Assembly: GCF_036785885.1 (NCBI RefSeq)
Contig: NC_092320.1
Location: forward strand, 15,253,557-15,317,556
Origin: Coffea arabica
Taxonomy: Eukaryota; Streptophyta; Magnoliopsida; Gentianales; Rubiaceae
Direction: 5' to 3'
Length of the DNA stretch: 64,000 nt
Below the pieces are notes generated by a model, which worked only from the letters and a program-made list of their open reading frames with translations, was not told the origin of the DNA and did not search any database. The translations under genes and the position numbers were made by a program. This document shows, one piece after another, positions 28,208-61,808 of this stretch (position 1 is the stretch's first letter; each line of letters starts with the position of its first letter).

Positions 28208-30531
28208 GATGAAACCCAACGTGACGCGCCGGTGTTGGGTGCCTTTTTTTAAAATTTTTTATATGATTTTTAAGAAAAATACAATAAGATTGAAAACGTA
28301 AAAAGTGTTTTAGATATAAATTGTTAAAAAACGTGTATATAAAGTAAGTATCATATCAATTGAAATAGAATTACACGTACACTAATTCCTTCTCGCCCTA
28401 CACAAAAATAAAGTTAATTTTGAGTGCACATAATGTTTTTTTCTACATATGTTAATCAAGAACAGAAGCGAAATTGTGTATGAAAGCAGTCTATAAGAAG
28501 GCAGAGACTTCACTATTTACCTACCCCTCACAAAAAGAAAGAGAATTGACCATTTTGGCATGCAAGGAATATGAGATGTTTGACTTTTAGAAAAAACACA
28601 TTTGGATTACCTTGTTAATCCCTATCTTCTAAATACGATACCTAACTGGTGTTGATATTCACATGCTTGTAGAGGATGCCATGCCTTATGATGCTTGGTT
28701 TGAGTTATTCAAGGGCAAAATGAAATATCAGAAGGAAAACATGTGGGAAAGGGTCAAAATATATCTTGGAGCATTATTTACGTCAGTTTTAAAATTGTCA
28801 TTGCAATTATCTTAGTTATGTCTTTTGATTTTTTTTATTGCTTTAATCTGAAAATTTTGTTAAAAATTTGTAGTGAGCTTATGGAATCAATGTTGAAAGC
28901 TCATGAAAACGGCTTCAAAATTCATGATAGAATTGGTAACGTTGTATATATAGAGAAGGAAAGGGACCATGATCATATTGTGAAAAAATGCAAGTTCACT
29001 TACTTGGATATTGCTAATGGTATTCTTAGCAAACTGAGTGTCCTTATATTTTTTTGATATTATCTAAACTATTTATTCTCTCCTAATCTACTATTGGTGT
29101 GAGTACAAGGGGGTCCTTACGTAGACGACATGAAATGGTTTTGAAAAAAGATTGATATATTCCATAAGGGATGCTGATGTTTTAGTGCAACACCACAGCA
29201 TCTCAAAGATTTCATTGCTGCGCCATCACATAATTTGTAAGCATTGATTTCATGTTTTGTTAAAATTGTATTTTTTTAGTAAGTTATACCTTGTATTGAT
29301 GTCCCAATAAGAGTACACCAGGGATGGAATCCCCTAAATAACTTTGCAATCGAAAGAAAACTAACATCTTAAAATAAAATACACTATAAAAATGTTAGAC
29401 TAAGCAAATATAGAATTGAAAAGATTCATCTCAAAACACAATTGCACTGTTTCTAAACTGGCTTTAAATTGCTTCTAGCCCACTGCCATGCCTCGAATGG
29501 CGTAGACATATTGTTTAAAAATACTGACATTCCAGTAGATCCAAACCTTGTAGAATGTTGCAGCAAAAACTATCATTATCACTATAGGAACAAAGGAAAC
29601 CAGAGAACAGTTCAATATCATCCACCAAAGCTCATCATCAAAATGTTTATCAAAAGCACTCTATTTTAATCCTTTGAACAAGATAAAGCTCATCTTTAGT
29701 TGTTCGCACTTTGCTAAATATATCCCTGTAATTTCACTTATTTAATTCCTTAAGTCTTGTTCTCAATATTCTAAGTTTAATGCATAAAACTTCTAATGGG
29801 TTGCCCACTACATCTGGTTTTCAAGCATTTCATAAGACTTCTTGGAACCTAGAACTTTTCATCTGGATTTTGTGAAATTTAAATGGCTTAGGTCCAGCAT
29901 CTCAATCTTCTATTATACAAATAAATGAGGGCGTGCAACCGGCTATCTCAGGATCCAAAACTTCTGCGTATAACGGTTTCCCAACCTAGCTTGCTAATTT
30001 TTTTAGTCCTCTAGTATTATAATAATGCAACTTGAGTTCTGGAAGGCTGATAGGCACTAGCTTCAAGCATCCTTATATCCAAATTAGGATTTCATGGCTT
30101 GAAGAACAACGTGCGACTATCAAAGGGTCAAGGAGACTGCTCTGATATACTGTTCTTAACATCCTTATAACTACAATCGAACACAAACACACAATTTTTT
30201 AGCATAGCACACTCCACATGCCTCAAATTATGTTGTTACCATTTAATTGAAATTTCTATGCGACAATTTCACTATATATCTTTGACCAATGCAACTTTTC
30301 TGTTGCCTTGATGGTTGACTCCTATAAAGTGAAACTAATCGGACTATCGACTGTTCTTATTTTTGAAAGTCTTGAAGGAAAGCTAATTTCATCTCTCTAA
30401 TTTTCATAATTAAATTTCTGTAGTGGATAGTCTAATTTTCATATATATGCCACCTAATGTAAAGAGGCAATTAAGAGATATTTCAATTTCCAAACATTTT
30501 CTAATTCTGAAAGATAGTTACAAAAATAGAG
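28208..30531. repeat. Array unit 5
   Basis: Full unit of 2324 bp. The gene-fragment second exon has diverged slightly (IGNVVYIEKERDHD). The LINE zinc-binding piece shows scattered substitutions. There are no indels large enough to change the layout. Confidence 0.87.
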
Positions 30532-32861
30532 GATGAAACCCAACATGAGGCGCGGGTGTTGGGTGCCTTTTTTTAAAATTTTTTACATGATTTTTAAGAA
30601 AAATACAATAAGATTGAGAACGTAAAAAGTGTTGTAGATATAAATTGTTAAAAAACGTGTATATAAAGTAAGTATCATATCATTTGAAATAGAATTACAC
30701 GTACACTAATCCCTTCTCGCTCTACACAAAAATAAAGTTAATTTCTAAGTGCACATAATGTTTTTTTTTTTTTACATATTTTAATCAAGAACACAGACGA
30801 AATTGTCTATGAAAGCAGTCTATAAGAAGACAGAAACTTCACTATTTACCTACCCCTCACAAAAAGAAAGAGAATTGACTATTTTGGCATGCAAGGAATA
30901 TGAGATGTTTGACTTTAAGAAAAAACACAGTTTGGATTACCTTGTTAATCCCTATCTTCTAAATACGATACCTAACTGGTGTTGATATTCACATGCTTGT
31001 TGAGGATGCCATGCCTTATGATGCTTGGTTTGAGTTATTCAAGGGCAAAATGAAATATCAGAAGGAAAACATGTGGGAAAGGACCAAAATATATCTTGGA
31101 GCATTATTTAGGTCAGTTTTAAAATTGTCATTGCAATTATCTTAGTTATGTCTTTTGATTTTTTTTATTGCTTTAATCTGAAAATTTTATTAAAAATTTG
31201 TAGTGAGCTTATGGAATCAATGTTGAAAGCTCATGTAAACGGCTTCAAAGTTTATGATAGAATTGGTATCGTTGTATATATGGAGAAGGAAAGGGACCAT
31301 GATCAGATTGTGAAATAATGCAAGTTCCCTTACTTGGATATTGCTAATGGTATTCTTAGCTAACTGAGTGTCCTTATATCTTTTTGATATTATCTAAACT
31401 TTTTATTCTCTCCTAATATACTATTGGTGTGAGTACAAGGGGATCCTTACATAGACGACATGAAATGATTTTGGGAAAAGGTTGATATATTCCATAAGGG
31501 ATGCTGATGTTTTAGTGCGGCACCACAGCATCTCAAAGATTTCATTGCTGCACCATCATATAATTTGCAAGCATTGATTTCATTTTTTGTTAAAATTGTA
31601 TTTTTTTAGTAAGTTATACCTTGTATTGATGTCGCAATAAGAGTACACCAGGGATGGAATCCCCTAAACAACTTTGCAATCGAAAGAAAACTAACATCTT
31701 AAAATAAAATACACTATTCAAATGTTAGACTAAGCAAATATAGAATTGAAAAGATTCATCTCAAAACACAACTGCACTGTTTCTAAACTAGCTTTAAATT
31801 GCTTCCAGCCCACTGCCATGCCTCGAATGGCGTAGACATATTGCTTAAAAACACTGACATTCCAGTAGATCCAAACCTTGTAGAATGTTGCAGCAAAAAC
31901 TATCCTTCTCACTATAGGAACAAAGGAAACCAGAGAACAGTTCAATATCATCCACCAAAGCTCATCATCAAAATGTTTATCAAAAGCATTCTATTTTAAT
32001 CATTTGAACAACATAAAGCTCCTCTCTAGTTGTTCGCACTTTGCTAGATATATCCCTGTAATTTCACTTATTTAATTCCTTAAGTCTTGTCGTCAATATT
32101 CTAAGTTTATTGAATAAAACTTCTAATGGGTTGCCCACTACATCTGATTTTCAAGCATTTCATAAGACTTCTTGGAACCTAGAACTTTTCATCTGGATTT
32201 TGTGAAATTTGAATGGCTTAGGTCCAGCATCTCAATCTTCTATTATACAAATAAATGAGGGTGTGCAACCGGCTATCTCAGGATCCAAAACTTCTGCGTA
32301 TAACGGTTTCCCAACCTAGCTTGCTAATTTTTTTAGTCCTCTAGTATTATAATAATGCAACTTGAGTTCTGGAAGGCTGATAGGCACTAGCTTCAAGCAT
32401 CCTTATATCCAAATTAGGATTCCATGGCTTGAAGAACAACGTGCGACTATCAAAGAGTCAAGGAGACTGCTCCGATATACTGTTCTTAACATCCTTATAA
32501 CTACAATCGAACACAAACACACAATTTTTTAGCATAGCACACTCCACATGCCTCAAATTATGTTGTTACCATTTAATTGAAATTTCTATGCGACAATGTC
32601 ACTATATATCTTTGACCAATGCAACTTTTCTGTTGCCTTGCTGGTTGACTCCTATAAAGTGAAGCTAATCGGACTATCGACTGTTCTTATTTTTAGAAGT
32701 CTTCAAGAAAAGCTAATTTCATCTCTCTAATTTTCATAATTAAATTTCTGTAGTGGATAGTCTAATTTTCATATATATGCCACCTAATGTAAAGAGGCAA
32801 TTAAGAGATATTTCAATTTTCAAACATTTTCTAATTCTGAAAGATAGTTACAAAAATAGAG
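30532..32861. repeat. Array unit 6
   Basis: Full unit of 2330 bp. In the first gene-fragment exon the in-frame stop after FDF is changed (TTTAAG), so a 60-codon frame is open at 30803-30985. The second exon instead gains a stop near 31316. An expanded T-run lies at about 30758-30773. Confidence 0.87.
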
Positions 32862-35181
32862 GATGAAACCCAACATGAGGCGCGGGTGTTGGGTGCCTTT
32901 ATTTAAAATTTTTTACATGATTTTTAAGAAAATACAATAAGATTGAGAACGTAAAAAGTGATGTAGATATAAATTGTTAAAAACGTGTATATAAAGTAAG
33001 TATTATATCAGTTGAAATAGAATTACACGTACACTAATCCCTTCTCGCCCTACACAAAAATAAAGTTAATTTCTAAGTGCACATAATGTTTTGTTTTTAC
33101 ATATTTTAATCAAGAACACAGACGAAATTGTCTATGAAAGCAGTCTATAAGAAGGCAGAGACTTCACTATTTACCTACCCCTCACAAAAAGAAAGAGAAT
33201 TGACCATTTTGGCATGTAAGGAATATGAGATGTTTGACTTTTAGAAAAAACACAGTTTGGATTACCTTGTTAATCCCTATCTTTTAAATACGATACCTAA
33301 CTGGTGTTGATATTCACATGCTTGTTGAGGATGCCATGCCTTATGATGCTTGGTTTGAGTTATTCAAGGCAAAATGAAATATCAGAAGGAAAACATGTGG
33401 GAAAGGGCCAAAATATATATTGGAGCATTATTTAGGTCAGTTTTAAAATTGTCATTGCAATTATCTTAGTTATGTCTTTTGATTTTTTTTATTGCTTTAA
33501 TCTAAAAATTTTGTTAAAAATTTGTAGTGAGCTTATGGAATCAATGTTGAAAGCTCATGAAAACGGCTTCAAAGTTTATGATAGAATTGGTATCGTTGTA
33601 TATGTGGAGAAGGAAAGGGACCATGATCAGATTGTGAAAAAATGCAAGTTCACTTACTTAGATATTGCTAATGGTATTCTTAGCTAACTGAGTGTCCTTA
33701 TATCTTTTTGATATTATCTAAACTTTTTATTCTCTCCTAATATACTATTGGTGTGAGTACAAGGGGGTCCTTACGTAGATGACATGAAATGGTTTTGGGA
33801 AAAGGTTGATATATTCCATAAGGGATGCTGATGTTTTAGTGCGGCACCACAGCATCTCAAAGATTTCATTGCTGCACCATCATATAATTTGTAAGCATTG
33901 ATTTCATTTTTTGTTAAAATTGTATTTTTTTAGTATGTTATACCTTGTATTGATGTCGCAATAAGAGTACACCAGGGATGGAATCCCCTAAACAACTTTG
34001 CAATCGAAAGAAAACTAACATCTTAAAATAAAATACACTATTCAAATGTTAGACTAAGCAAATATAGAATTGAAAAGATTCATCTCAAAACACAACTGCA
34101 CTGTTTCTAAACTAGCTTTAAATTGCTTCCAGCCCACTGCCATGCCTCGAATGGCGTAGACATATTGCTTAAAAACACTGACATTCCAGTAGATCCAAAC
34201 CTTGTAGAATGTTGCAGCAAAAACTATCATTCTCACTATAGGAACAAAGGAAACCAGAGAACAGTTCAATATCATCCACCAAAGCTCATCATCAAAATGT
34301 TTATCAAAAGCACTATATTTTAATCCTTTGAACAAGATAAAGTTCCTCTCTAGTTGTTCGCAATTTGCTAGATATATCCCTGTAATTTCACTTATTTAAT
34401 TCCTTAAGTCCTGTCCTCAATATTCTAAGTTTATTGCATAAAACTTCTAATGGGTTGCCCACTACATCTGGTTTTCTAGCATTTCATAAGACTTCTTGGA
34501 ACCTAGAACTTTTCATCTGGATTTTGTGAAATTTGAATAGCTTAGGTCCAGCATCTCAATCTTCTATTATACAAATAAATGAGGGCGTGCAACCGGCTAT
34601 CTCAAGATCCAAAACTTCTGCGTATAACGGTTTCCCAACCTAACTTGCTAATTTTTTTAGTCCTCTAGTATTGTAATAATGCAACTTGAGTCCTGGAAGG
34701 CTGATAGGCACTAGCTTCAAGCATCCTTATATCCTAGGATTCCATGGCTTGAAGAACAACGTGCGACTATCAAAGGGCCAAGGAGACTGCTCCGATATAC
34801 TGTTCTTAACATCCTTATAACTACAATCGAATACAAACACACAATTTTTTAGCATAGCACACTCCACATGCCTCAAATTATGTTGTTACCATTTAATTGA
34901 AATTTCTATGCGACAATTTCACTATATATCTTTGACCAATGCAAATTTTCTGTTGCCTTGCTGGTTGACTCCTATAAAGTGAAGCTAATCGGACTATCGA
35001 CTGTTCTTATTTTTGGAAGTCTTCAAGGAAAGCTAACTTCATCTGTCTAATTTTCATAATTAAATTTCTGTAGTGGATAGTCTAATTTTCATATATATGC
35101 CACCTAATGTAAAGAGGCAATTAAGAGATATTTCAATTTCCAAACATTTTCTAATTCTGAAAGATAGTTACAAAAATAGAG
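32862..35181. repeat. Array unit 7
   Basis: Full unit of 2320 bp. It has the longest surviving LINE C-terminal frame (34054-34335, minus), which shows FDDELWWMILNCSLVSFVP before the common AATFYKVWIYW piece. The second gene-fragment exon ends in a stop at ILS (TAA at about 33685). Confidence 0.87.
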
Positions 35182-38100
35182 GATGAAACCCAACGTGAGG
35201 CGCGGGTGTTGGGTGCCTTTTTTTAAAATTGTTTACATGATTTTTAAGAAAAATACAATAAGATTGAGAACGTAAAAAGTGTTGTAGATATAAATTGTTA
35301 AAAAACGTGTATATAAAGTAAGTATCATATCAGTTGAAATAGAATTACACGTACACTAATCCCTTCTCGCCCTACACAAAAATAAAGTTAATTTCTAAGT
35401 GCACATGATATTTTTTTTTACATATTTTAATCAAAAATACAGACGAAATTGTCTATGAAAGCAGGCTATAAGAAGGCAGAGACTTCACTATTTACCTACC
35501 CCTCACAAAAAGAAAGAGAATTGACCATTTTGCCTTGTGAGGAATATGAGATGTTTGACTTTTAGAAAAAACACAGTTTGGATTACCTTGTTAATCCCTA
35601 TCTTCTAAATACGATACCTAACTGGTGTTGATATTCACATGCTTGTTGATGATGCCATGTGAGACCGCAAAATTTTACTTGTTTTTATAACTTTTATTTG
35701 AATTTATTTGCCTTAGATTCTTGATTGTTTTAATGGTTAAATTTGAGTCAAGGGAGTGAATTTTGTTAAGAAAAATTTCATAATCTCAAATTGCTGGAAA
35801 ATTTAGAAATTTTCGCAGAAGGCTATGCGCAGCTTTGAAAAATTGGCTAAAACTTCGTATTGGAAAGTCGGAATTGAGTTCCGTTTGTTGCGTTTGAAAC
35901 TAGACTCATAGGGTTTCCTACAGTGAAAAATTTAGACTTTGATTCAATCTCTATAAATTCCAGAAAATTGGCAAAATTGACTGAAAATTCTGCCTTGCAC
36001 AAGTAAACATAAGAATGTTGTAATAATTTATGATTCAATTTGGACTAACTTATGAGTTGAATTTCTTTGAGATGTCTTCTAAAGATTATTAGTGTTTAGG
36101 TCTAGTTTTTAACAGGTCAAGTTGTATGAATGTTTGACATTTATAACTCAAGTTACGATTTTTCTAAAGGAATGGCATAAGTTAGGGTTTTTTTGTGTAT
36201 TATAGGGTTTTTGGTGTGTTTTTGGTGCATTTTGATAGTGTGATCATTTGGTGAGGTGTGTGTACTAAATTTGGTGGTTAAAAGTGAGTTTTAAATAAGA
36301 GAAAGTGTGTGATTAGAAGTGCTAATAATAAGTTAGTGAATCATAAGTGAAAACACTAGTACGCACGAGTTAAGAAAAATAGGTTTGAATCGACGTGCAC
36401 CGGTTGTTACTGATTGAGTGTACCAATTGAACACTATTTTATTACCTTAATCTCCTTGTTATTAATTGAGCAAAATCAGCCCTAAATATCTCCTTATACC
36501 AGCTGAAATTTTGGACTAAAAAACAAGAGTGAAAAGAAAAAATTTGACCTCAAATCAAAGCGTGACACTTGTTGGAAATTTAGTAAACTTTGACTAAACA
36601 AATTTTCTACTTTCTTATCTTTCTTTTTGGCTCAATTTCATTCATTTTTGCTTCATGTTGGCCGAAATTAAGAGAGGGAAAAAGAGAGAAAAACAGCTTC
36701 AACTCCAACCTTAATTCTTCCATGTTGAATTGAAATCTCAAAAACTAAACCAATTAAACTTACCTATTGGTGTTTGAAAAGTTTGGTGTGGTGAAATTTT
36801 TGGAAGAGAGTGATTTGATTTTCACTTGCAAGCAGCTTTTGGAGGGTATAAGGCTTGACTTTCCTTTTCTCTTGCTTAATCTTGTTGAATTTGGGATAGA
36901 AGCTTATATTCTTGGTTTGCTATGGCTACTTGTTTAGTTTTGATAGAGTAGTGGCATGTTTAGTTAGGATTTGCATCTTTTCAGTTTTGATTAGTATTGT
37001 TTAACTAGTAAATGATGTTATTGATGTTGAAAATAGAACTTGTGAAGTGATTTTGGGCTTGAGTGTAACTTTGTTAGAGTAAAAATTGAATTCCAGCATT
37101 TGGTAGAGATTCTGCCCTGTTTTTGGAATCAATCTGACCTGTATATTCGTCTATGATAAAACCAAATAAGTTCTTACTCAAAACATGAAAGTTGTAGGGA
37201 ATTGATTTAACTATCTACATACAAAATTTTAACTCAATCGGAGTACTGTTTCACAGGCAGCTTTCTGTTTTCTCTGAGATTTCAAATTTTGACCCTGGAA
37301 ATGAGAGAAATGGGTGTTGATGTCTCATAAAAAATGTAGGTCTATGCCTTAGATTCGAAACGCCATAACATTTGCCTCAATCCAATAAGTGTAGGTTCAG
37401 TTGTGACCAAAATGCCGAAAGATGACAAATCTGCCACTTAGACATTCTTCTTTAATACTTGTTTTCAGTTTTGGTCTTGGTGGTTTTATTGTTAAAATTG
37501 ACTTGTATTTGGATGATATTGAACCTAGTTGAAGAGTTATTGTGTTAGGATTGCTTATGTGTTTAATTTGGGCTGAATTGAGAAAAATAATGAAGCCATA
37601 AAAGGCTGAAAAATAGCTAAATACAAAGGGCGTGTTGATCAAATTTTCACTTGAGGGTTAGGCGTATGTACTCGCGACTTGAGCGACGATTTGAGGTCGA
37701 ATTGGATTTAGATTGTCTAGGGTGTTCGAGTTTTCTTTCGTAGAGGTATATAAGTTGAAATTTTGCTGAAACTCGTACCCTTGAAAAAGTGAAAGTAGCG
37801 ACAACTCGAAATATATTTTCCTCGTCTTTTAGACTCAAACACGAATTTCAAAGTTTTATTTGTTTCTGTAGCAATACCAAAAGAGCGAGCATGAATACTA
37901 CCTAAATGAGTTTCAGTTATTTGATTTTCTTTAAGCAAAACCGTTAAGTTTCGAACTCTAGTTGATTTCAAACTTTTAAATGATGTTTTACCGCAGATTT
38001 GAACTCCAACCAAGGAGTTGTACCTGAGCGTAATTTTGGCAAGCACTAAATCTTTGGTGAGTGCTTTCAATTACATGATTGAAATTGATACTTGATTTAA

Positions 38101-46600: not shown

Positions 46601-47123
46601 TCTATGCCTCACCTTCGGAACAATGGCAGAGCAGAGGGAGGAATTTCAGGACTGAAAATAAAAAGTGTATTTTAGGCTTGCTAGTGACTGAAAATAAAAG
46701 TGAAGAAACTCCCACTGCAAGGGCTGCTACAACGTCTACGTTTACTTCCAACCCTAGCGCAAGATGTTCATCTAATCCATACATCAATTCAAGCATACAG
46801 TAGAGGTATGCCATGCTCCATGGTCGTCGGGGAAGCAGGAGAAACCGTGAAAACAGACAACCTAACAACACTTGATCCCTCTTCATCATCCCAATCAACA
46901 AAAGGGACCAAAGGGTAGCATATTTAAAGGGAGCAATCCGCAGGAGTGAAAATACAGTAGGGTCTTCAGGGGACAAAGATTCACCATAAATCATCAATAT
47001 AACCACTTGGACGAGAAAGGCAATCACAAGTGCAAAACATACGCTCAACAGAACCATGGAACCAAGGTGGTGAGCAGCGGTTACCAAATACCCCGTCTGC
47101 TAACACATTTGTTGCGTTAGGGA

Positions 47124-47708
47124 TAGAGCTGTAAACGAGTCGAATCGAACCGATTATCTCATGTTTGAGCTCTGTTCATTAAACAATTCGAACAACGTTC
47201 GTGTTCGTTCGTTAATTTTCGAACTCCAAACCTGTATTCGTGTACGGCTCGTTAAGCAAAATTCATGTTCGAGTTCGAGTTCGACTCGTTTAACATAAAC
47301 GAGCCGTTCGCGAACATACTCGAAATGCTCGAATCCAAATTATTTTAAGCCTTGAATATGCCATACAAATCATTAATCATTCTAAAAAATAATTAAAGCA
47401 CTAAGTGATTTAATTCTATTATTCATTAACTATATAACTAACATTAACATAAAAATAACAAATAAAACCCTCCAAATATAAAAGTCTAGCCATAAAATTA
47501 ACCCTAAAATTTGTCAAATGATAATTATGTCCATGTTCGCGAACATTCGTTAAAACTCGCGAACATACTCATGTTCGCTTGATTATTAATTGAACAAAAA
47601 AATTCGTTCGAACTCGATTCATTTAAGGTTTCGAACGAGTCTTTCACGAACACGAACGTGTCGAAATGAACCGAATTACTGAACTATTCGGTTCGTTTAA
47701 CAGCTCTA
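47124..47708. mobile_element. Non-autonomous hAT-like element, 585 bp, 8-bp target duplication
   Basis: The left end TAGAGCTGTAAACGAGTCGA and the right end TTCGTTTAACAGCTCTA are inverted copies. GTTAGGGA flanks both sides (47116-47123 and 47709-47716). The 8-bp duplication and the TAGAGCTGT-type termini are those of hAT elements. The interior is rich in TTCGAACG-like subterminal motifs (CGAACACGAACGTG, TCGTGTTCGTTCG) and has no transposase. Its removal restores co-linearity of P2 with P1. Confidence 0.85.
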
Positions 47709-49980: not shown

Positions 49981-50313
49981 CCTCGGAAAGGGAAACCTTT
50001 ATGGTAGGAAGGCGTTCTACCGTAGGTAGAGGGGCAGAGCAGAGCATGACACGTGTATTTGGAAATAAAGGTGCTAACGGACCGGTTATGCTGTAGTCCT
50101 AACGCGCGTGGAGAATGTCAACCATATAGAAGCATTGTATGTGATTTGGTATATTTTAATACTCTATCATTTTCAAGACATTGATCAAACATGATCAGTT
50201 CAATTTCTTTCATTTTCTCCAAAAGCTCTCATTTTTTCTTTTTGTATCTTTTTCGTTTTCAATACATCAATTGGACCAAAAAAATAAAATAAAATTGAAA
50301 ATATGTAAAAGAA

Positions 50314-50573
50314 TTTTTAGAATTTAAGAATTATTTGAGATATTTTATAAAAATTTCAACCACCCACCACCACCCACAGGGACCACGGGCTAGTGATTTT
50401 ATGTATTTTACACACCGACCCATAAAGAGCGGGTGCTTTGTTCATATGTTGGAGGAGTGGTTTATGGGTCGATGTGCAAAATACATAAAATCGCTAGCCC
50501 GTGGTCCCAGTGGGTGGTGGTGGGTGGTTGAAGTTTTTATAAAATATCTCAAATAATTCTTAAATTCTAAAAA
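50314..50573. repeat. Nested foldback element (arms about 112 bp, spacer about 35 bp)
   Basis: The left arm runs TTTTTAGAATTTAAGAATTA to about GACCCATAAA; the right arm is its near-perfect reverse complement and ends TTAAATTCTAAAAA. The arms include a striking CCACCCACCACCACCCAC tract. An open frame of 73 codons here is an accident of the palindrome. No clear target duplication was found. Confidence 0.85.
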
Positions 50574-50679
50574 TATCCCAAAATACAACCATAAAAACAC
50601 CCCTAAAAACAATCTCATTATTTAAAATACCAAATCTGTGAGTGTGTTTTAACTGTTATCCATTGGTATCCTAAAGTAT

Positions 50680-51010
50680 CATTTTCCCATCAAATATCAG
50701 CTCTTTATGGCTTTCTTCCATTATAAGAACAGAGTACCTATGTTCCAGAATACCTGTTTTCCCATACACAAATTTATTTATCGAATAAAATAAAAATAAA
50801 TCCGTTTTCCAATAAAACACCAGTTCTTTATGGCTTTCCTCCATTATAAGAACAGAGTACCCATTTTTTCATAAACAAATTTATTTATCGGATAAAATAA
50901 AAATAAACTCATTTTCCAATAAAATACTAACTCTTTATGGCTTTCCTCCATAACTTATCCATTTACCCATTTTTCCATAAGCTAATTTATTAATTGGATA
51001 AAATCAGAAT
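50680..51010. repeat. Three-copy tandem repeat, period about 107-122 bp
   Basis: CTCTTTATGGCTTTC-type landmarks occur at 50701, about 50824 and 50931. Each copy also has an AAATTTATTTATCGRATAAA segment and TTTTCCAATAAAAYACYA. The last copy is degraded. Confidence 0.8.
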
Positions 51011-52019
51011 AAAATTAGGTTGAATGGCAAATTACCCTTTAGGATACAATTGAAAACAAGAAACTAACCTATAGCAAGTTTAAACTCCGTTTCCACTAGC
51101 TATAGATATGCAAGAAATTGTTTTTGCAAACTCAAGACACCTAATTTATAAAGTCTCAAGCAACCTTTAGAACCGTTATAAAAGGTAACTTATTCATTCT
51201 AAATTTTTGTTTGGGATAATTTCATAAACCTCCCCGGAGGTTTCTAACAATTTTACTTGGCACTCACAAATATTGAAAAATCTCACTTGCCTCTCTCTTT
51301 TTTTTTTTTTTTTTTGGGTGTGAAACTCACTTGCCTCCCTTACTTTAAACTATTTGTTTATTTACAGCTCATTTTAAAATATAATATTTAAAAAATTCAT
51401 TTTGAGTACATTAATAAATGTAATTCTAAATTTACCCTTTTGTTGTCTTAAAAAATGTAATTCTAAATATACCCTTTTGTTGTCTTACTTTTTATTACCA
51501 AAACTTGAGTATATTAAAAACAAATAAAAATAAAAAAGTATAAGGATTTATTCTGATTTTATAAAATATAGTGCATTTTTTAAATACCAATAGTTAGTAT
51601 TTGAATGTTTATTTGAAGTTTTTGCAAGTTACAAAGATAATGTTTTGGGTAGTCTATAAAGTGTTTTTCAATTAATTTATGAACCTTTTACATATTTTCA
51701 ATTTTATTTTATTTTTTTGGTCCAAACTGATGTATTGAAAACGAAAAAGATACAAGAAGAAAAAATGAGAGTTTTTGGAGAAAATAAAAGAAATTGAACT
51801 GATCATGCTTGATTAATGTCTTGAAAATGGTAGAGTATTAAAATATACCAAATCACATACAATGCTTCTATATGGCTGACATTCTCCACGCGCGTTAGAA
51901 CTACAACATAACTGGTCTGTTAGCACCTTTATTTCCAAATACACGTGTCATGCTCTGCTCCTCTACCTACGGTAGGACAGTCAATGCCCTTCCTACCATA
52001 AAGGTATCCCCTCGGAAAG

Positions 52020-52953: not shown

Positions 52954-52963
52954 ACAATTTGCT

Positions 52964-53245
52964 GAGTAAATTCCCAAAAAGTGTGACTTTTTAAACTAAC
53001 TTCCCAAAGGGTGGTGTTTTTTTAGTATCTTCCCAAAGGATGAAAAACGCATCCAGGGAATGCGTTTTTATAAATAAAAATGCAATTGTCAAATGCGTTA
53101 TTTTATTTTTCATCAATTTATTTTAATATGAAAAAATTGGTCAAATAACGCATTATTAGAATGCGTTTTTTGATCTCACCATAAAACGCATTTCGGAAAT
53201 GCGTTATTTTATAATAAAACGCATTAGATGAATGCGTTGTTTGTT
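52964..53245. repeat. Left TIR of the PMD-MULE
   Basis: About 282 bp pairs with 61493-61798. The outer 100 bp is nearly identical between the two TIRs. The inner part carries about nine copies of ATGCGT/ACGCAT in alternating orientation (for example GGAATGCGTTTTT, AAATAACGCATTATTAG, CGGAAATGCGTTATT). Being at the 3' side of both genes, this TIR would act as downstream region or terminator. Confidence 0.88.
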
Positions 53246-54236
53246 TACAATATGTACCACTTTTTTTCATTTCTTCATTCTGGACTTCGATTATGTAAGG
53301 TTTTTGTTTTAAATATTATCTTATTATTTTATCGAAGTTATTATTAATTTAGCTCACTAATGGAAGTCAAGATCCAAAAAAATTGTTATTTCATAGTTGT
53401 TATTAATTTAGTTGGTAGAGATTTCATTTCAGGTTTGCAAAAGGCTTAAAGGTTTTGAACTTTGGATTTTACATATGTATACACTAATTTTGTATCTCAA
53501 ATGTTGGTAGTAAAATTCAAAAAGTATTATAATAATATTATTACGAAAGGAAAACTAGTAGGTTTTGTATTTAATATAAATTAAATACGTGAAAGTAAAA
53601 AAAAGAAATTACCCACTTTTTACCAACTCTTTATGGGTTTCTTCGATTAGTTGAATAAAGTACTAGCTATGGGGGCAGGCATTTTACTCTGAATCATATA
53701 ATTTATGTTAAATATATAAATGTTTGTAAGTAAAATTTAAAAAGTGTTATACTAATATTTTTATGAAAGGAAAACTAGTATGTTTTGTATTTAACATAAA
53801 TTAAATATTTGAAAGTTAAAACAAAATTAAATTGCCCATGACATACCAGTTCTTTATGAAAAACTTGTAGGTTTTATATTTAACGTAAATTAATTGCGCG
53901 AAAGTAACACTCGTAGGTAATTTAATTAGTTTAATCAGTTACTTAATTTGTTGACAAGAAACAAGTTTCTTTTGCAAAATTTGGCCATTAGGTTTCTCCA
54001 AATAATTAGGGTATAAAGGTAAATTTTCACAATCTTTTGTTAGCAATGAGCTCCAATTTCCTTCTAAGGGAGGGCAGTGCTTAATTTATATCACCTGTTA
54101 AGCAAACACTTGCATATTCAAATATGTCATAAGATGATATAATATCACATCTAATTTCATATACTAAATTTACTTGGTTTTCAATCCAAATTCTCTTATA
54201 CAATAAGAATTCTTATAACAAGACAAGTACAATAAA
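53246..54236. repeat. 3' region of the PMD gene with diverged tandem repeats
   Basis: A segment containing GAAAGGAAAACTAGTAGGTT and TTTGTATTTAATATAAATTA occurs at about 53545, again at about 53765, and in shortened form at about 53860. ACTCTTTATGGGTTTC and CAGTTCTTTATG within it recall the tandem repeat of the 50-kb element. There is no coding sequence. The PMD 3' UTR should lie at the right edge. Confidence 0.65.
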
Positions 54237-56691
54237 TCATTTGAGAATGCCTCCAGAGTAACACAACTTTTGCCTTCTGACTCTTTTAGATGGTGGCCGC
54301 AAGGGTAGATGCTGATTTTTACCACGACCTTTACAAGTGTCACGCTTATTTCGATCAACATGTTCTTGTGTTTGATGTTGCAAATCAAACTCCAGATGTG
54401 TCTGATCATGCTTATCACTTTGCACATGCGTCAGATCATGTTCACCAGCTTGTGCATGTGTTGTATCAGCTTCTGTATGTTCATCCCCTTGACCTTGATC
54501 GAGATTGATTTCAGAAGTCCGATCACATGTCTGATTGAACTCATTAGCTGTTTCCTCATTTCCCACGTCTCTAGTCTCTTGATTCAACATATGATCTCCT
54601 ACAAACTCATCCTGACTTAAAATCTGATTTTGTACACTGTTTTGATCAGTTTGGATGTGTTTTCGCCTTCGTCCCCCTCTATGGATTCTTTGTGAACCTT
54701 CTTGTGTGGCTCTTCGAACACGTGCCCGTGGAACTACATGTTGCAACTCTTCATCCATTGAGAGCGGCATTATTGGATTCAATGGTAGGAGTTTCAATCT
54801 CATCTCACATCCAATGGCACGCATAGTTGATTGGCACATATCCCGAATATCAGTGAGAGCAGGAACAGAGATGGCCTCAGCATGTGGTAATGCTTCAAGT
54901 GATCTATAATAGACACGATGCAATGTATCTACCTGAAATGTTATCAAAATAAATTCTAATGCTGCCAATACAAAACTTTAAACAAAGTAGTCAATTAAAA
55001 ATATCTAAATAATGGTTACCATCATCTCATTAGCTGGTGCAATACCCTGATAACCAGCTGGTAATAGTGGTCTCAATGATGGGTTGCCAATAAGCAATCT
55101 TGTACGCTGCTTATACCAAGTCATATACTCTAAGCTAGCCTCACCAGGAACCTCCTCGAGTTCACCTTCTTGTATACTTGAAGCTCGATCCATCCACATT
55201 TGGATGTGGCGGTAGTGTTTAAGGGTCCAATCTGTATTTCGTCTACCTCGACGATCCACTTGATGCAAACTCCAATCCGTGTCACATGGTGCCGGAATAT
55301 GCTGAACAAATCCAAATTGTCGCATACACCTATCTGGTAGGTGTAGCTCTACTATATCCCAACAAATAAGTGCAGTTCGACTACGCCACAATTCAGAACT
55401 AGCCAAACAACACTGAGGCAATGTCTCTAAAATGTGTTGAGGATATGGTTGCCATACAAACTATGAATAACAAAATGGAAAATTACAAAATAAACTAAAA
55501 AAATTTGGTTGTAACTTGCAATTTACCATGATACATGAAATATGCATGAAATAAATACTTACATGATCATCTCTCAAGCTATCTAGTTGATCTCGATATA
55601 CAACTAATACATGCATTGCTACTCTAGAAAGGTTAAAATCGACATTCCACCTACAGAATAATCAACAATACACCGTCATTGTTACGGTAATGTATCTAAA
55701 TTATATACCTAATATATCCTAACACTAATAGGCAGATACAAACTAACCTTGCACCATAAGGACTCTCAGCTGGCAACTCCATTTTAGGCACTGGCCTATC
55801 TGGACATAAGGTAGGAAATCGTTCCCATGTCCAAAGCTAAAACAAAAATTAGGATATTTAACAAGAATAGGTCATAATTGTTAGAAACCAAAAAAAAAAT
55901 TCAAAGAGTTTTAGTGAAAATACCTGTAAAAGAACCAATGGTCCAGCAATCTCTTGTGAGGTACAAAGAGTAGCTCTACATAGTCCACGATATAAAAAAG
56001 CAAGAACTGCACTCCCCCAACTATATGTTCGAGTAACAGTAAAATCTCTTAGAAATGACAAATACATTAGGCTGACCATGTTGCCAGATTTATCTGAAAA
56101 CAGGTGACCACCAATAAGCTGTAAAATACGCATCCTAGCATGACATCTAATATCATCATCTGATGCATCACTAGGAAGTCTGACAGCTAAGGGAGCATCT
56201 AAACAACCCAATAATAGTTTCCCTCCCTTAATATCATCTGTTTTAGGTCGAAATCCTAACAAGTCCTCACAAATCGGCAACCAATCCTCTGATTTTCGAT
56301 GTGTGTCCACACCTATAACAGGCTGTCCGTCAATAGGAAGCCCCCATAATATCCCTATATCTTGTAAAGTGACGGTAGCTTCACCAATAGGAAGATGAAA
56401 TGAGTGAGTTTCAGTTCGCCAACGCTCAACCAAAGCTGTGACAAGTGCGTGGTCGAGTTGTATTTGACCTGTGCGCACAACACCACCAAAGCCAGCTTCA
56501 TCAATATACCTTTGCACCCTAGGATCGAATGGAATTCCTCTCCAAAATTCACCGTCATGTCTCCGAACTTGTAATGGCCTATAGTGTCCAGCACCTATCC
56601 AAATATCTGTGGATCGATGGTGGGGTTGGCGCGTCAATACATCTCCAATAATAGGACCAGGAACAAATGCAACTAATTGTTCATTATCCAT
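54237..56691 (-). CDS. Plant Mobile Domain (PMD) protein, five exons, 693 aa
   Basis: The PMD family (Pfam PF10536) includes the Arabidopsis nuclear proteins MAIN/MAIL1, which act in heterochromatin silencing and genome stability with PP7-like phosphatase; many other members sit in transposons. The exons, in transcript order, are 56691-55924, 55836-55748, 55650-55563, 55460-55020 and 54932-54237. All introns are short and GT-AG, with matching phases. The start MDNEQLVAFVPGP was preferred over an upstream in-frame ATG at 56739 whose extension is Phe/Ile-rich and unlike the family. Diagnostic pieces are ALVTALVERWRTETHSFHLP, GEATVTLQDIGILWGLPIDG (residues about 93-132), WLPICEDLLGF and HLPDRCMRQFGFVQHIPAPC. 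The PMD core covers roughly residues 20-430. The C-terminal 200 residues are polar, with Gln/His/Asp-rich repeats and basic NLS-like patches (RGGRRRKH, SKRVRRQK). The stop of the transposase lies only 150 bp upstream. The family call is strong; a role in transposition is inference. Confidence 0.92.
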
Positions 56692-56841
56692 ATGTCCTAA
56701 AATCCAAAAAAAAAAGATAATATTATTAGAAAATAACACTTGAAGGATTTAATTTCAAACATACAAATCAATGATTGATTAGAAATCAATGTTAGACCCT
56801 CTAATGAAAGAATACCAAAATCCAATTATGACTCTGTAGAA

Positions 56842-59724
56842 CTATGATTGATTATAAGATAGCCTTGACTGATTAGAAGACAACCTTGGACAATTTTTCC
56901 TATTATGACCCGGAAGGTGGCAGGTTCGACATCTAGGAGCATCATCTTCTCGCTCATCCATCTCATTGTGAATACGTGCTGTAGATGTGCGTCCTTGATG
57001 TGGTGGACGCATACGAGTCATATCTCCTACTAATGAAAATGGTTGACCAGGCCAATAATCCTCATGTTGTATAGGATGAAATTGCCCACTATACGTCTTT
57101 AAATACAAGTTCTTGTGGTACTCCTGGCCCACAAGTGTAATAGGATTAATGCTCATCATACGACATGCAAGCATAGCATGGGAGCATGGGATGCGAGTGA
57201 TCATCCATTTACCACACGTGCACGATCTTTCTTTCATACATACCGTTTGTGTGTTTCCTCCTTTTCCAGATTCATCTATGTGTGTCAATATATTGAAAAT
57301 GCCATCACTTAAAGAGAATTGCACAGCACTATGTTTTCTGCCTTTAATTTCAGCCTCTCGATATATCTTCCATGGCCTTTTTGGAAGTGGATGTTGACAA
57401 TGTAGAGCATCCTCCTTCTTATCTTGAAACATCTTAACTATTCGAGTGAATACTAGTTCAACGGCAGCTCTAATAGGCAGATTACGAACACCTTTGATTG
57501 CATTGTTGAAACTCTCAGAAATATTAGTTGTCAACATTCCATGTCGGTACCCCCCATCATAAGCTAAGGTCCATAGCTCTTCTTTCCCTATTTCTCTTAG
57601 ATATTTAGCAGCTTTTGCATCAATCCTCTCAATTTCTGCCATTATCTTGGTGAACTTGCGCTTTTGAGGGGTAGAACCAGCATCCCAACACAATTTCTTT
57701 AGATGCGTGTTATGAAACTTTGTGTTAAAGTTACTCCTAACATGTCGCAAGCAAAGTCGATGAACTGCATATGGCGGTTGCCAAAGCCTCTGCAATCTAA
57801 TTGCATTTAATATTCCTTTATGACGATCAGAAATCAAGCAAACTTGTCTTTCTTTAAGAACATGTTGACGAAGAAGACGCAAGAACCAATTCCAGCTTTC
57901 ATTGGTCTCTTCATCCACATAAGCATATGCCAAAGGAAAAATTTGATTGTTTGCATCTTGTCCGACTGCAAGTAGCAACTTAGCCTTGTATGGAGTGTGA
58001 AGAAATGTTCCATCCACACTAATTACAGATCGGCATGACAAAAAACCATCAATTGCTGGCTTGAAAGCCCAGAACATATAGCCAAATGTCTTCAAAATTT
58101 CTGAACTGCACGGGTGGTGTTCCCAAACAACAATAGTACCAGGATTATAATATACCATAGCTGCCATGAACCTAGGTAGTTTTGTGAATGAGGTTGGCCA
58201 ATCACCAAAGACCATTTCAATAGCTTTACATCGAGCAATCCATGCCTTCTTGTATGACACATCATAATGCAAAGTTTTTTTAACATGAGTTTGAACTTGC
58301 TTGACACTAGCAAGTGCATTTTCTTTAATAAAATGCACAATTCTGCGAGCAATGATCCTCGATTGAAGATGCCTATGATCATTTGTTGATGCCGTTGAAG
58401 TACAAGTATGGTCTGGAATCAACTTAGTAACTTCCCAAGTTTTATGTGTAGCTTTCAAACAAGCTCTAAGTTGCCATTTGCAGCCTTCATCAGATTTTAA
58501 ACATTTTACTTTCCATGCTGTACTTCGACTCTCTTGAACTTGAAACTCGCGGCATTGCTCCATAGACCAAAGTCGGACTGCCATCATCAATTGCTCTTTG
58601 TCACTGAATCGCATATGCTTGCGAATACCAGCACTATTTTCACTCCAAAAGTCTATCCTTGTAGGAGATCCCCTACCAGTGACAACAAATTTGTCAAGAT
58701 CTCCAATATCTAAATAAAAAGGCATTCCGGGTGGATTGTAAGCAGGTAATTCAGGACTAAAAGTAACATTATTACTAGTATGACCATTATCCTCCCCAAA
58801 AGTGCATTGTTCATTTTCAACCTCGACATTGCAATCACTGTCTTCATCAGACTGCCCTTGTTCAGCATCAATGAAAGCATCATCTCTAGACGGCAAAGAT
58901 GCTTCATTCTGGACTAAGTTATGAATCACATCAGTTATCCCAAGTGCATTTCCAATTTCAGCCCCAACAATAGGTTCTTCAGCTGCTAAAATGGTTCTCA
59001 TAGTTCCAATTTCTTCTCTATTATGATCCAATTGAAATAAACTAGAACAGCCAACATCATCTTCTAGTACATGCACCTGTCTTTGTTGGTTAGCACTCGC
59101 AGTTTCATTATGTTCTGTATATTCGAGTGCATTCCGTGACACTAAAGGAGTAGGTAATGATGATTGGATGGGTTTCAATGAAGGTGACATACTACTCATT
59201 GCACGAAAAATGGTATCATTATTTGAAGATGGCAACCATTGTGCACCATGCTTATCTTTAAGAAAAGATTGAGTGCATGAAGTTGTAGGTGCAGGTAATA
59301 TCGGAGATTCAACATCTTGTGTCAGCAAATTTACATATGGAGCCATTTCCTTACTGGTGAAGATGTTATTGCCCTCCTGACAATTGACAACTGATTCTCG
59401 TACAATGTATAGATGAACCATAGTATTTGGGTACTCAGCTGCTAAAGAAAATATCAAATCCATTCCCTCTTCGTTCATTATTAGTAATGGGCAAAATTTG
59501 AAACCCCACGGTCCATGATCAGGATATTTGCAGATGAGCTTCAAATCTATAGTTATTGTATCCACTCCAATATATGAGTGTATATTACTTAGTAAGTCTC
59601 CAAATCTTATCCTGTGGTTGATTGTAACTATCTTGCCAATTGGGCCTATAAATCCCAAATCAGGATAATATTGGATATGACCATCCCAATATAAAGCAAG
59701 TTTCAATGGATGTTGAAGATCCAT
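56842..59724 (-). CDS. MuDR-type (MULE) transposase, 960 aa, intact
   Basis: Predicted transposase of the Mutator superfamily, which cuts and pastes the element through its TIRs. The start at 59724 (MDLQHPLKLALYWDG) is preferred; the frame extends 35 codons further up, but that stretch looks like intron and follows a TTTATAG acceptor-like sequence. The N-terminal 110 residues resemble the PB1/ubiquitin-like head of plant MULE transposases. A MuDR DNA-binding region lies at about 370-440 (WKVKCLKSDEGCKW, IPDHTC). The DDE core shows Asp 571 (SVDGTF), Asp 633 (LISDRHKG) and a Glu candidate at 737 (NISESFNNAI), with the usual CLRH motif shortly after the second Asp. A SWIM zinc finger (CTCGKWMITRIPCSH) is at 835-849, and a CCHC knuckle (CRTCHLPGHNRKNC) at 932-945. 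There are no internal stops. The length suits a full-size MULE transposase. Confidence 0.93.
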   Translation of the reverse strand: MDLQHPLKLALYWDGHIQYYPDLGFIGPIGKIVTINHRIRFGDLLSNIHSYIGVDTITIDLKLICKYPDHGPWGFKFCPLLIMNEEGMDLIFSLAAEYPNTMVHLYIVRESVVNCQEGNNIFTSKEMAPYVNLLTQDVESPILPAPTTSCTQSFLKDKHGAQWLPSSNNDTIFRAMSSMSPSLKPIQSSLPTPLVSRNALEYTEHNETASANQQRQVHVLEDDVGCSSLFQLDHNREEIGTMRTILAAEEPIVGAEIGNALGITDVIHNLVQNEASLPSRDDAFIDAEQGQSDEDSDCNVEVENEQCTFGEDNGHTSNNVTFSPELPAYNPPGMPFYLDIGDLDKFVVTGRGSPTRIDFWSENSAGIRKHMRFSDKEQLMMAVRLWSMEQCREFQVQESRSTAWKVKCLKSDEGCKWQLRACLKATHKTWEVTKLIPDHTCTSTASTNDHRHLQSRIIARRIVHFIKENALASVKQVQTHVKKTLHYDVSYKKAWIARCKAIEMVFGDWPTSFTKLPRFMAAMVYYNPGTIVVWEHHPCSSEILKTFGYMFWAFKPAIDGFLSCRSVISVDGTFLHTPYKAKLLLAVGQDANNQIFPLAYAYVDEETNESWNWFLRLLRQHVLKERQVCLISDRHKGILNAIRLQRLWQPPYAVHRLCLRHVRSNFNTKFHNTHLKKLCWDAGSTPQKRKFTKIMAEIERIDAKAAKYLREIGKEELWTLAYDGGYRHGMLTTNISESFNNAIKGVRNLPIRAAVELVFTRIVKMFQDKKEDALHCQHPLPKRPWKIYREAEIKGRKHSAVQFSLSDGIFNILTHIDESGKGGNTQTVCMKERSCTCGKWMITRIPCSHAMLACRMMSINPITLVGQEYHKNLYLKTYSGQFHPIQHEDYWPGQPFSLVGDMTRMRPPHQGRTSTARIHNEMDEREDDAPRCRTCHLPGHNRKNCPRLSSNQSRLSYNQS

Positions 59725-61492
59725 TAAAACATATGCTAACAAGCCTTCAAATGCAATGTAAACTACAGTCAATTCATCTCGAATGTTGAAAAATACTATA
59801 AATAAAAAGTATATTTTAAAACCAGTCATATCTTGTAAATGTAGGTAACTCCTAAACTTCTAAACTGTCCACAGGTATTACGTTCTATACTGTGAAAGAA
59901 TCTTTCAAAAATAAAAGTCTATAGTAGTCTCTTATTTCTTTTCATTTTGACATGACCACACATTAATTTAGATTAATATCTATAGTGCCAACATTCATAT
60001 TCGCCAATAACCAATAAAGAATAAGAAAATATTTCAAGAACGACCTAACAATAACTGAAAGAGAGTAGACATACATGTATCAAAAGTGTTGAATGTAATA
60101 TGCTGCTACGTTTTGTATCTAAACTCTTGCATGTATCTAAGTCTTGAGAATTTAAAAAAAGCACACAAGAACGCACACAACACATGCAGTGGGTGGCTCA
60201 GAAGGCAAGTTGTTGGACTGATTAACAAAATCCCCTGCTCCTCTTCTAACAAAATCATGGTTCAGACCAGTTAAATTGACATTAAGTACATTCTTACAAG
60301 TAAACTGAGAGAAAGTTAGATATCTTCAAATAAATTAACTGAATGCTAACTACACTGACATGTAAAAAAAAAAAAAAGAAAATTCGAAAACAAGGTGAAA
60401 AATATATCTCCTGCTTCAGTTTTGAAGTAATCTCCAGCAAAGTGTACAAGGTGTGGAGTCTAATTTAGCATCTTGACATAATCATCTCATATTATGGTCT
60501 GTTGGGGATATCTTTTCCCAAATCTTTTACTTTTTGTCTGCTGGGGTTTGCTGGATTGCTTAATTCCTTTGTATTCTATAATTCATTATTGTGCAAGAGA
60601 TTATGGATCAATACATTTTTGAATCTAAGTGATGCATTACTGGGTGATGTAAAAAATTTATGAATTCAAGTAGTAATAGATCCGGATTTTAGAAGTTTAA
60701 TTCATGATGCATTAGTTGATGGCACGTACTTTGTCTTTTTCTATAAATGTACGGGATGCATATTGCTCTATACTATTTTGATTGCTTCACCCTTCTTATT
60801 GGTTTCAAGAACAACAGGAAGCAAAAATTCCAACCTTGGAAGCTCAACATATAAAAGTATACTAGTAGAAGAAATGTCATAAACACACGGAAGCCATTTA
60901 TATTTCAACCAAAAATAGTGTATGAAAAAAAAAGAAAAAGAAATTCAGCACTCACTTTGAAGAGAATGAATACTCTGGCAACAATTTATCCTTTGAATCT
61001 GCAAAAAAATAAACTTACTTTAAGTTTGAGGGAAAAAAAAAATTTCAGCACTTACTTGAGAGGGAAAAAGAAAGAAAGAAAGAAACCTGAGAGTAGATGA
61101 TCTGTAGAATTTGAGAAAATTCCAGAATCTCTTTGTCTAATACTCTCGCCCTTTGTAGGGTATCTTCCTCTGTCAATAAACCCCAAAGAATCATCTCAGG
61201 TTTGCTTTTTGCTCTTTAAAATAATTAAATGCATCCATTACATAAACCCTAAATTTGGGATTTTAAGTATTACCTGATAATATGCCTAATTAGCTCAGCA
61301 GTCTCCCAATCACCACCCTTGCTCTTACGTTGGCTGCGAATGTGGGATAAGATGTAAGAAAAAATTGAATGGGTGGTGCGTTTTGTTTGGCGCCTGAAGA
61401 AGTTAGGGTAGAAAAAGAGAGGGATTGAGGGGAAATTAGTTTTTAGACCCCTTATGAAGTACCGGGGAGTAGAACAGGCTTCTTAGATATGC
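59725..61492 (-). promoter_or_regulatory. Transposase 5' leader region with candidate non-coding or short coding exons
   Basis: About 1.7 kb lies between the transposase start and the right TIR. Two stretches look exonic on the minus strand: one ends at 61274 with donor GTAATACTT, and one runs 61169-61087 between a TTGACAG acceptor and donor GTTTCTT. Joined, they stay open in one frame (KGGDWETAELIRHII, then GRYPTKGESIRQRDSG) but have no ATG, so they are most simply leader exons of the transposase and perhaps also the PMD transcript. The promoter should be in or near the TIR; a pyrimidine-rich CTCAATCCCTCTCTTTTTCT stretch at about 61408-61427 suits a transcription-start area. Confidence 0.4.
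60182..60262 (+). other. Weak tRNA/SINE-like piece inside the MULE leader
   Basis: GTGGCTCAGAAGGCAAGTTG resembles a pol III A box and TGGTTCAGACC a degenerate B box about 50 bp on. It cannot fold into a proper cloverleaf, so it is not called a tRNA gene. It may be a SINE relic or chance. Confidence 0.2.
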
Positions 61493-61798
61493 TAAACAAC
61501 TCATTTAGCAAATGCGTTTTTTTATTAATAAACGTATTTCAGAAATGGGTTTTAAGGACCAAAAACGCATTCATCCTATGAGACTTTTTAAAATAAGGCA
61601 TTCTAATAATGCGTTATTTAACCAATTTTTTTATATTAAAATAAATTGATGAAAATTGAAATAACGCATTTGACAATTGCGATTTTATTTATAAAAACGC
61701 ATTTCCTGGATGCGTTTTTCATCCTTTGGGAAGATACTAAAAAATCACCACCCTTTGGGAAGTTAGTTTAAAAAGTCACACTTTTTGGGAATTTACTC
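61493..61798. repeat. Right TIR of the PMD-MULE (promoter side)
   Basis: Inverted copy of 52964-53245. The outer part (61690-61798) is almost identical to the left TIR; the inner part is more diverged, and several ATGCGT/ACGCAT motifs are changed by one base (for example ACGTATTT, ATGGGTTT, AAGGCATT). This is the upstream end for both genes. Confidence 0.88.
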
Positions 61799-61808
61799 AC
61801 AATTTGCT

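What the first reader, a model, noticed from the sequence alone, without database searches (positions are those of the whole stretch)
52954..61808. Structurally complete MULE that carries its own Plant Mobile Domain gene
Seen directly: a perfect 10-bp direct repeat (ACAATTTGCT) flanks an 8835-bp segment whose ends are about 0.3-kb inverted repeats, and inside are an unbroken 960-codon MuDR-type transposase and an unbroken five-exon PMD gene. Established: PMD proteins exist as host genes (MAIN/MAIL, silencing and genome stability) and in transposons. Inference: here the PMD protein is element cargo under selection with the transposase, possibly to counter or redirect host silencing, which would make this a two-protein transposition system. 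Clean flanks and open frames suggest recent activity.
Basis: partly seen in the sequence, partly recalled or inferred. Interest (0 to 1): 0.87.

Follow-up and report, generated by a model that had tools for sequence, protein, structure and literature searches.

The report
Young coffee transposon with VANC-like protein
A complete, recently moved Mutator-like transposon in what is most likely Arabica coffee carries, beside its transposase, a 'plant mobile domain' protein that many related coffee transposons also carry and whose relatives have a predicted fold like VANC21, the Arabidopsis transposon protein that lifts silencing from its own family, which suggests a testable anti-silencing role.

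The parts
52954..52963 (.). left target-site duplication ACAATTTGCT
   Evidence: empty homeologous site
52964..53242 (+). left TIR region; 9 AACGCAT motifs (either strand), 9 of its 10 CpGs lie in the motif
54237..54932 (-). PMD gene exon 5 (C-terminal tail, outside the PMD match)
55020..55460 (-). PMD gene exon 4 (C-terminal part of PMD)
55563..55650 (-). PMD gene exon 3
55748..55836 (-). PMD gene exon 2
55924..56691 (-). PMD gene exon 1 (N-terminal part of PMD); an AG ends 5 nt before its ATG
56842..59724 (-). transposase, 960 aa: N-terminal stretch similar to that of P0013 (PB1-like in the model), MuDR DNA-binding domain (sub-threshold), MULE domain, SWIM zinc finger, weak C-terminal zinc knuckle
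61494..61798 (-). right TIR region; 6 AACGCAT motifs (either strand), 6 of its 8 CpGs lie in the motif
61799..61808 (.). right target-site duplication ACAATTTGCT
   Evidence: empty homeologous site

Best explanation
This is a young, structurally autonomous Mutator-like element of Coffea arabica. Shown: it sits between 10-bp duplications where the homeologous chromosome has one copy of the target and no element, most simply an insertion after the two subgenomes parted; its family includes deletion derivatives with the same ends; and PMD is a frequent neighbour of MULE transposases in this genome. Inferred: the transposase cuts and pastes the element by its TIRs, and the PMD protein is a VANC-like sequence-specific DNA-binding protein that recognises short motifs clustered in the element's ends (best candidate AACGCATT/AATGCGTT), keeps those CpG-rich ends and the promoters in or near them unmethylated, and so lets the transposase gene be transcribed. 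Host MAIN/MAIL proteins, which act in silencing, would be relatives on the host side.
Against: No binding, methylation or expression data. The window protein itself was not modelled; the models are of Cinchona P0013 and Oldenlandia P0010, the latter read as a host gene. DUF1985 matches are weak (window protein E 0.25, 11.8 bits against a cut-off of 35.1). PDB sequence searches did not find VANC21. The motif array could be the transposase's binding site; the one end read of the diverged C1 relative has only 3 AACGCAT. Host PMD proteins act in silencing, the opposite direction. The CpG excess of the ends is not unique (37 of 3186 sliding windows, those over the ends included, equal or exceed the left TIR).
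Confidence: 0.5

Rival explanations
1. PMD is a transposition cofactor (a mudrB-like second protein): it binds the ends with the transposase and helps excision or integration, without touching silencing.
For: Tight same-strand pairing with the transposase; the motif array lies in the ends, where a transposition complex would assemble; mudrB is described as apparently required for integration (PMC6446971, introduction).
Against: The VANC21 fold match points to anti-silencing; in Hiun the anti-silencing function sits in a separate ORF, vanC (PMC6446971, introduction).
Confidence: 0.17
2. PMD is a decoy or dominant-negative copy of the host MAIN/MAIL proteins: it titrates PP7L or displaces MAIN/MAIL1, releasing silencing widely rather than by a motif.
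For: Shared domain and host-like introns; [quoted passage not shown] counter-silencing by TE-encoded PMDs already proposed (PMC8616336, passages; PMC5418596, passages).
Against: Does not explain the motif array or the closeness to a sequence-specific DNA-binding protein; PP7L binding was not tested.
Confidence: 0.18
3. PMD is carried passively: an old capture that persists without function.
For: In the window's own family selection on PMD is not demonstrable (WIN-C19 dN/dS 0.49, P 0.23), and the six deletion copies read have each lost parts of both genes.
Against: PMD dN/dS 0.12-0.23 in a related family with P 4e-5 to 6e-17; a PMD match beside 39 of 48 transposase loci; open PMD frame in both full copies.
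Confidence: 0.06
4. The AACGCATT arrays are transposase-binding sites and have nothing to do with PMD (compatible with either role of PMD).
For: They are restricted to the two ends and kept in deletion copies that lack one or both genes, as expected for cis sites needed for mobilisation.
Against: None decisive; the CpG in each motif and the VANC precedent favour a methylation-linked reader, but this is inference.
Confidence: 0.4

Closest known systems
PMD-carrying plant MULEs (Ikeda 2017 PMC5418596; MULE groups 45-50 in Table 1 of Dupeyron 2019 PMC6446971)
   Same: MULE with SWIM transposase and a PMD gene; Table 1 gives PMD 'in most' for groups 47-49 and 'in antisense for most' in group 50, TSD 9-10 bp where stated, TIR up to about 450 bp
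   Different: Those PMDs are described as fused to the transposase (grasses, Amborella) or often antisense; here it is a separate five-exon gene on the same strand just downstream, in coffee
VANDAL21 / Hiun with VANC21 (Arabidopsis)
   Same: MULE with an extra gene whose product has the fold that the PMD models match; short motifs clustered in non-coding parts of the element. Table 1 of Dupeyron 2019 lists 'PMD and/or DUF in half the members' for the VANDAL group
   Different: PMD over Pfam's cut-off, DUF1985 not; 9-10% identity in the structural alignments; motif in the TIRs as facing pairs, not YAGTATTAY tandem repeats; no activity shown
Host PMD-C genes (MAIN, MAIL1, MAIL2)
   Same: Same domain; coffee host-like PMD genes L020/L021 have tblastn breaks at the three intron positions of the window gene inside the domain, L030/L031 at two of them plus an insertion near the third
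   Different: The window gene lies inside a mobile element and groups with MULE-linked PMDs, apart from the L030/L031 clade
maize MuDR (mudrA + mudrB)
   Same: Two-gene Mutator element (PMC6446971, introduction)
   Different: mudrB is not a PMD protein and the two genes are convergent (both recalled); tandem here

Membership tests
Autonomous TIR-MULE (Mutator superfamily) | 8-11 bp target-site duplication | tested here: met
   10 bp, perfect, at 7 of 8 copies examined, read from printed flanks; empty site with one copy. Copy C5:36387815 shows none.
Autonomous TIR-MULE (Mutator superfamily) | long terminal inverted repeats | tested here: met
   209 nt 95% plus 64 nt 81%; similar ends at other places in the genome
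Autonomous TIR-MULE (Mutator superfamily) | intact MULE transposase | tested here: met
   PF10551 over cut-off, open 960 codons; also open in the C5 copy. Catalytic residues were not checked one by one.
Autonomous TIR-MULE (Mutator superfamily) | transposes | not testable with these tools
   past mobility shown by copies and the empty site only; no assay
Plant mobile domain family (PF10536) | full-length domain over Pfam's cut-off | tested here: met
   313 bits against 34.9, 1-347 of 347
Clade of MULE-linked PMDs | groups with PMDs next to MULE transposases rather than with host-like genes | tested here: met
   30-tip clade with support 0.953 that excludes L030/L031 relatives; branching inside is unresolved (0.093) and several tips have unknown context or no transposase found
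VANC (VANDAL anti-silencing proteins) | same fold as VANC21 | tested here: met
VANC (VANDAL anti-silencing proteins) | DUF1985 over Pfam's cut-off | tested here: not met
   window protein 11.8 bits against 35.1; 24 of 50 PMD proteins match at E <= 1, best 2.8e-5. So: may work like, not filed as, VANC
VANC (VANDAL anti-silencing proteins) | binds short motifs of its own element and removes methylation there | not testable with these tools
   a candidate motif array exists; no binding or methylation data

The most novel reading that the evidence does not exclude
PMD proteins and VANC proteins are one ancient superfamily of DNA-binding regulators of silencing: MULEs that carry PMD use it as a sequence-specific anti-silencing factor on family-specific motif arrays in their own non-coding DNA (AACGCATT here, AAACCCTA arrays in the L025 family), and the host silencing proteins MAIN/MAIL belong to the same superfamily, so host silencer and transposon anti-silencer are two sides of one protein family.
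Probability: 0.45. Interest if true: 0.87.

Novelty: new member of a known kind. Interest (0 to 1): 0.62.

Why it matters
The function of the plant mobile domain is called unknown or undetermined in the passages I read (PMC5418596; PMC8616336), both for host silencing proteins and for transposons. A fold shared with VANC21, solved with its target DNA, gives a concrete hypothesis, and this coffee element is a clean test object: two near-identical complete copies, deletion derivatives that keep the ends, an empty site, and a compact candidate target motif. If true, sequence-specific anti-silencing would not be a peculiarity of Arabidopsis VANDALs but common among plant MULEs.

Tried and rejected
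Single chance capture of PMD: rejected. Fusion of transposase and PMD into one frame in the window: not seen; 150 bp with stops lie between the transposase stop and the PMD ATG. An AG ends 5 nt before the PMD ATG in the window and 8 nt before it in L025, and Cinchona P0013 joins a transposase-like N-terminus (27% over 102 aa, E 1e-7) to PMD, so splicing to PMD from an upstream exon is possible but untested. The C19 deletion copy is not an in-frame fusion by the coordinates. PDB sequence searches: P0013 none at E <= 1; profiles of the two alignments hit three and two chains, designed helical bundles and others I take as unrelated. Dating by TIR divergence was not used, since the two ends differ by about 5% in the near-identical copies too. 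The C1 relative (transposase 84%) looks decayed (dN/dS 0.49 with 3 stops); its PMD matches lie 14-16 kb downstream and were not read. The 13-kb TIR pair at C11:58675171-58688155 was not read. Co-phylogeny of PMD and transposase was not run: only three deep lineages were in hand. Whether the VANC21 structure paper already notes PMD could not be checked: I did not find it in the held library. Babu 2006, cited for the first MULE-linked PMD, is not held. The left-flank genome search did not complete and was not repeated.

Rows dropped: from the list I fetched the first 20 rows after L001-L008, leaving out C69 (short contig). In one search only the 117 N-terminal PMD rows of the list were used, not its C-terminal pieces. 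In the tree C5, L034, L035, L036 and 74 of the 122 proteins in hand were left out (P0001 and P0002 are transposases); itself listed 120 of 566 hits. Codons with stops were skipped in dN/dS.

Full report
OBSERVATION. ACAATTTGCT is found only at 52954 and 61799 in the window. Between the copies lie 8835 bp ending in inverted repeats of 209 nt at 95% and, further in, 64 nt at 81%. On the minus strand are an open transposase (960 codons from the second ATG) and, 150 bp after its stop, a PMD gene of five exons with GT-AG introns and 693 codons. Pfam: MULE 1.7e-20, SWIM, sub-threshold MuDR DNA-binding domain for the transposase; PMD full length at 3e-93 for the spliced protein.

SPECIES. I take it to be C. 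arabica, described as an allotetraploid in the abstract of PMC11018527 (search listing).

MOBILITY. The right-flank search found the homeologous place on C12; there the two flanks run on without interruption around one copy of the target, ACAATTTGCC. A second complete copy at C5:36387815 differs at 11 alignment columns in 8835, with both genes open; it shows no target duplication. Six further copies were read: C19 (deletion of window 56511-58867), C20, C10, C5:26.17 Mb, C5:41.33 Mb and C16, each with internal deletions that reach both genes, their main aligned pieces 98-100% identical (one 448-nt piece of C20 93.8%), and each with a perfect 10-bp duplication (ACTTAGTCAC, CAAGAAGCCA, ACAATTATTA, GTATTTTATT, CATCTCGGCC, CACAAATGTT). 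So 7 of 8 copies examined have perfect duplications. The TIR search listed 48 matches (40 of 291 candidates scored), so the family is larger than what I read. This is the usual picture of an autonomous element with non-autonomous derivatives.

IS PMD A STANDING PART? Of 48 scored transposase loci (of 3118 candidates), 34 have a PMD match 0.35-0.9 kb downstream, 34 of 34 on the same strand and in the same order, against 0.06 expected for uniform placement. The exon-1 search (148 of 1193 candidates scored) adds five, read off by eye: C4:25.37, C14:28.83, C17:5.82, C17:5.06 and C10:14.55 Mb (0.28-0.65 kb beyond the transposase match), making 39 of 48. The 48 include the window's element, its twin and other near-identical copies, so they are not 48 independent cases. 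Of the other nine, C20 and C10 are family copies with partial PMD (109 and 408 codons), C1 has PMD matches 14-16 kb further on, and six (C12:12.65, C2:11.76, C3:12.46, C12:13.40, C10:32.06, C12:52.68 Mb) are unresolved; a missing row is no proof of absence. From the other side, 10 of 20 PMD loci fetched have a recognisable transposase on the same strand upstream of PMD.

SELECTION. In the related family L025/L029/L032/L033, PMD dN/dS is 0.12 (L025-L029), 0.23 (L025-L032) and 0.21 (L025-L033), with P against neutrality 4e-7, 4e-5 and 6e-17; the transposase gives 0.25, 0.79 (P 0.19) and 0.15. In the L024/L018/L014 group PMD gives 0.49 and 0.37, transposase 0.49 and 0.28. For the window's own family the data are too few: WIN against C5 has no PMD difference in the first 462 codons and three non-synonymous transposase differences; WIN against C19 PMD has 5.5 synonymous and 9.5 non-synonymous (0.49, P 0.23); transposase of WIN against C20, C10 and the decayed C1 gives 0.35, 0.48 and 0.49. 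These are simple Nei-Gojobori counts on tblastn-projected codons, and the comparisons share sequences, so they are not independent.

ORIGIN. In a FastTree of 78 PMDs the window PMD falls in a 30-tip clade (support 0.953) with the ten other transposase-linked PMD loci of the tree, apart from the intact homeologous gene pair L030/L031 and its short-branched relatives in Oldenlandia, Rehmannia, Penstemon and Genlisea, which I read as host genes; order inside the clade is unresolved (0.093), and the clade also holds loci without a transposase found and proteins of unknown context. The window gene has introns after residues about 256, 286 and 315; tblastn breaks lie at those places in L020/L021 and at the first two in L030/L031, which have an insertion near the third, while the L025 family breaks only at the last. 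So the window gene has kept a host-like structure.

CIS MOTIF. All 15 AACGCAT of the window lie in the two ends of the element. AACGCATT is its most over-represented 8-mer, 13 against 0.31 expected, none between the ends; five of five deletion copies counted hold 15-16 AACGCAT; the one end read of the C1 relative holds 3; 200 kb of other coffee loci have 0.095 per kb. The CpG ratio of the ends is 1.64 and 1.3-1.4 against 0.48 inside and 0.51 in the rest; 15 of 18 CpGs of the ends are in the motif. The window has still higher spots (near 47.2 kb), so this alone is weak. In the L025 family another array, AAACCCTA, stands about 1.5-1.9 kb downstream of PMD in 6 of 6 loci; L024 has a GCACGTCC array that L028, identical to it in PMD, lacks, so that one may not belong to the element. 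Whether PMD or transposase reads these arrays is unknown.

KNOWN OR NEW. PMD in MULEs is in print: Ikeda 2017 (passages) reports PMD-C fused to MULE transposases in grasses and Amborella, captured twice, and speculates on anti-silencing; Dupeyron 2019 (introduction, first part of one section, and Table 1 rows) lists PMD in most members of plant MULE groups 47-50, often antisense, and 'PMD and/or DUF in half the members' of the VANDAL group; Nicolau 2021 (passages) names VANC21 and TE-encoded PMDs side by side as counter-silencing strategies. MuDR-like transcripts were reported in C. arabica (PMC3823963, passages). In the listings of searches and the passages I read I saw no statement that VANC and PMD share a fold or ancestry; the paper of the VANC21 structure was not found in the held library and may say so.

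VERDICT. The element is of an ordinary kind, unusually well preserved. The interest lies in PMD as a VANC-like fold. I put 0.5 on VANC-like anti-silencing as the PMD's job here, and about 0.95 on the element being a genuine, recently mobile two-gene MULE.

Noticed in passing
window 16400-36000: Tandem array of units about 2.32 kb long, about 7-9 copies, many 90-98% alike.
   Followed up: no
window 50037-51960: A 265-nt inverted repeat (91%) with 1394 nt between its arms, possibly a second, short TIR element or foldback; the ends were printed but no duplication was established.
   Followed up: partly
window about 47140-47700: CpG observed/expected up to 2.8 in 280-bp windows, the highest of the window, beside an ORF at 46602-47099 on the minus strand.
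   Followed up: no
L023, L025, L026, L027, L029, L032: A PMD-carrying MULE family with an array of the 8-mer AAACCCTA (plant telomere-like, recalled) about 1.5-1.9 kb downstream of PMD.
   Followed up: partly
P0013 (Cinchona): A predicted protein that joins a transposase-like, PB1-like N-terminus to PMD; could be a splice form or a deletion derivative of a PMD MULE.
   Followed up: partly
G000:C5:36387815-36396647: The near-identical full copy has no recognisable target duplication, which suggests a rearrangement or loss at one side.
   Followed up: no
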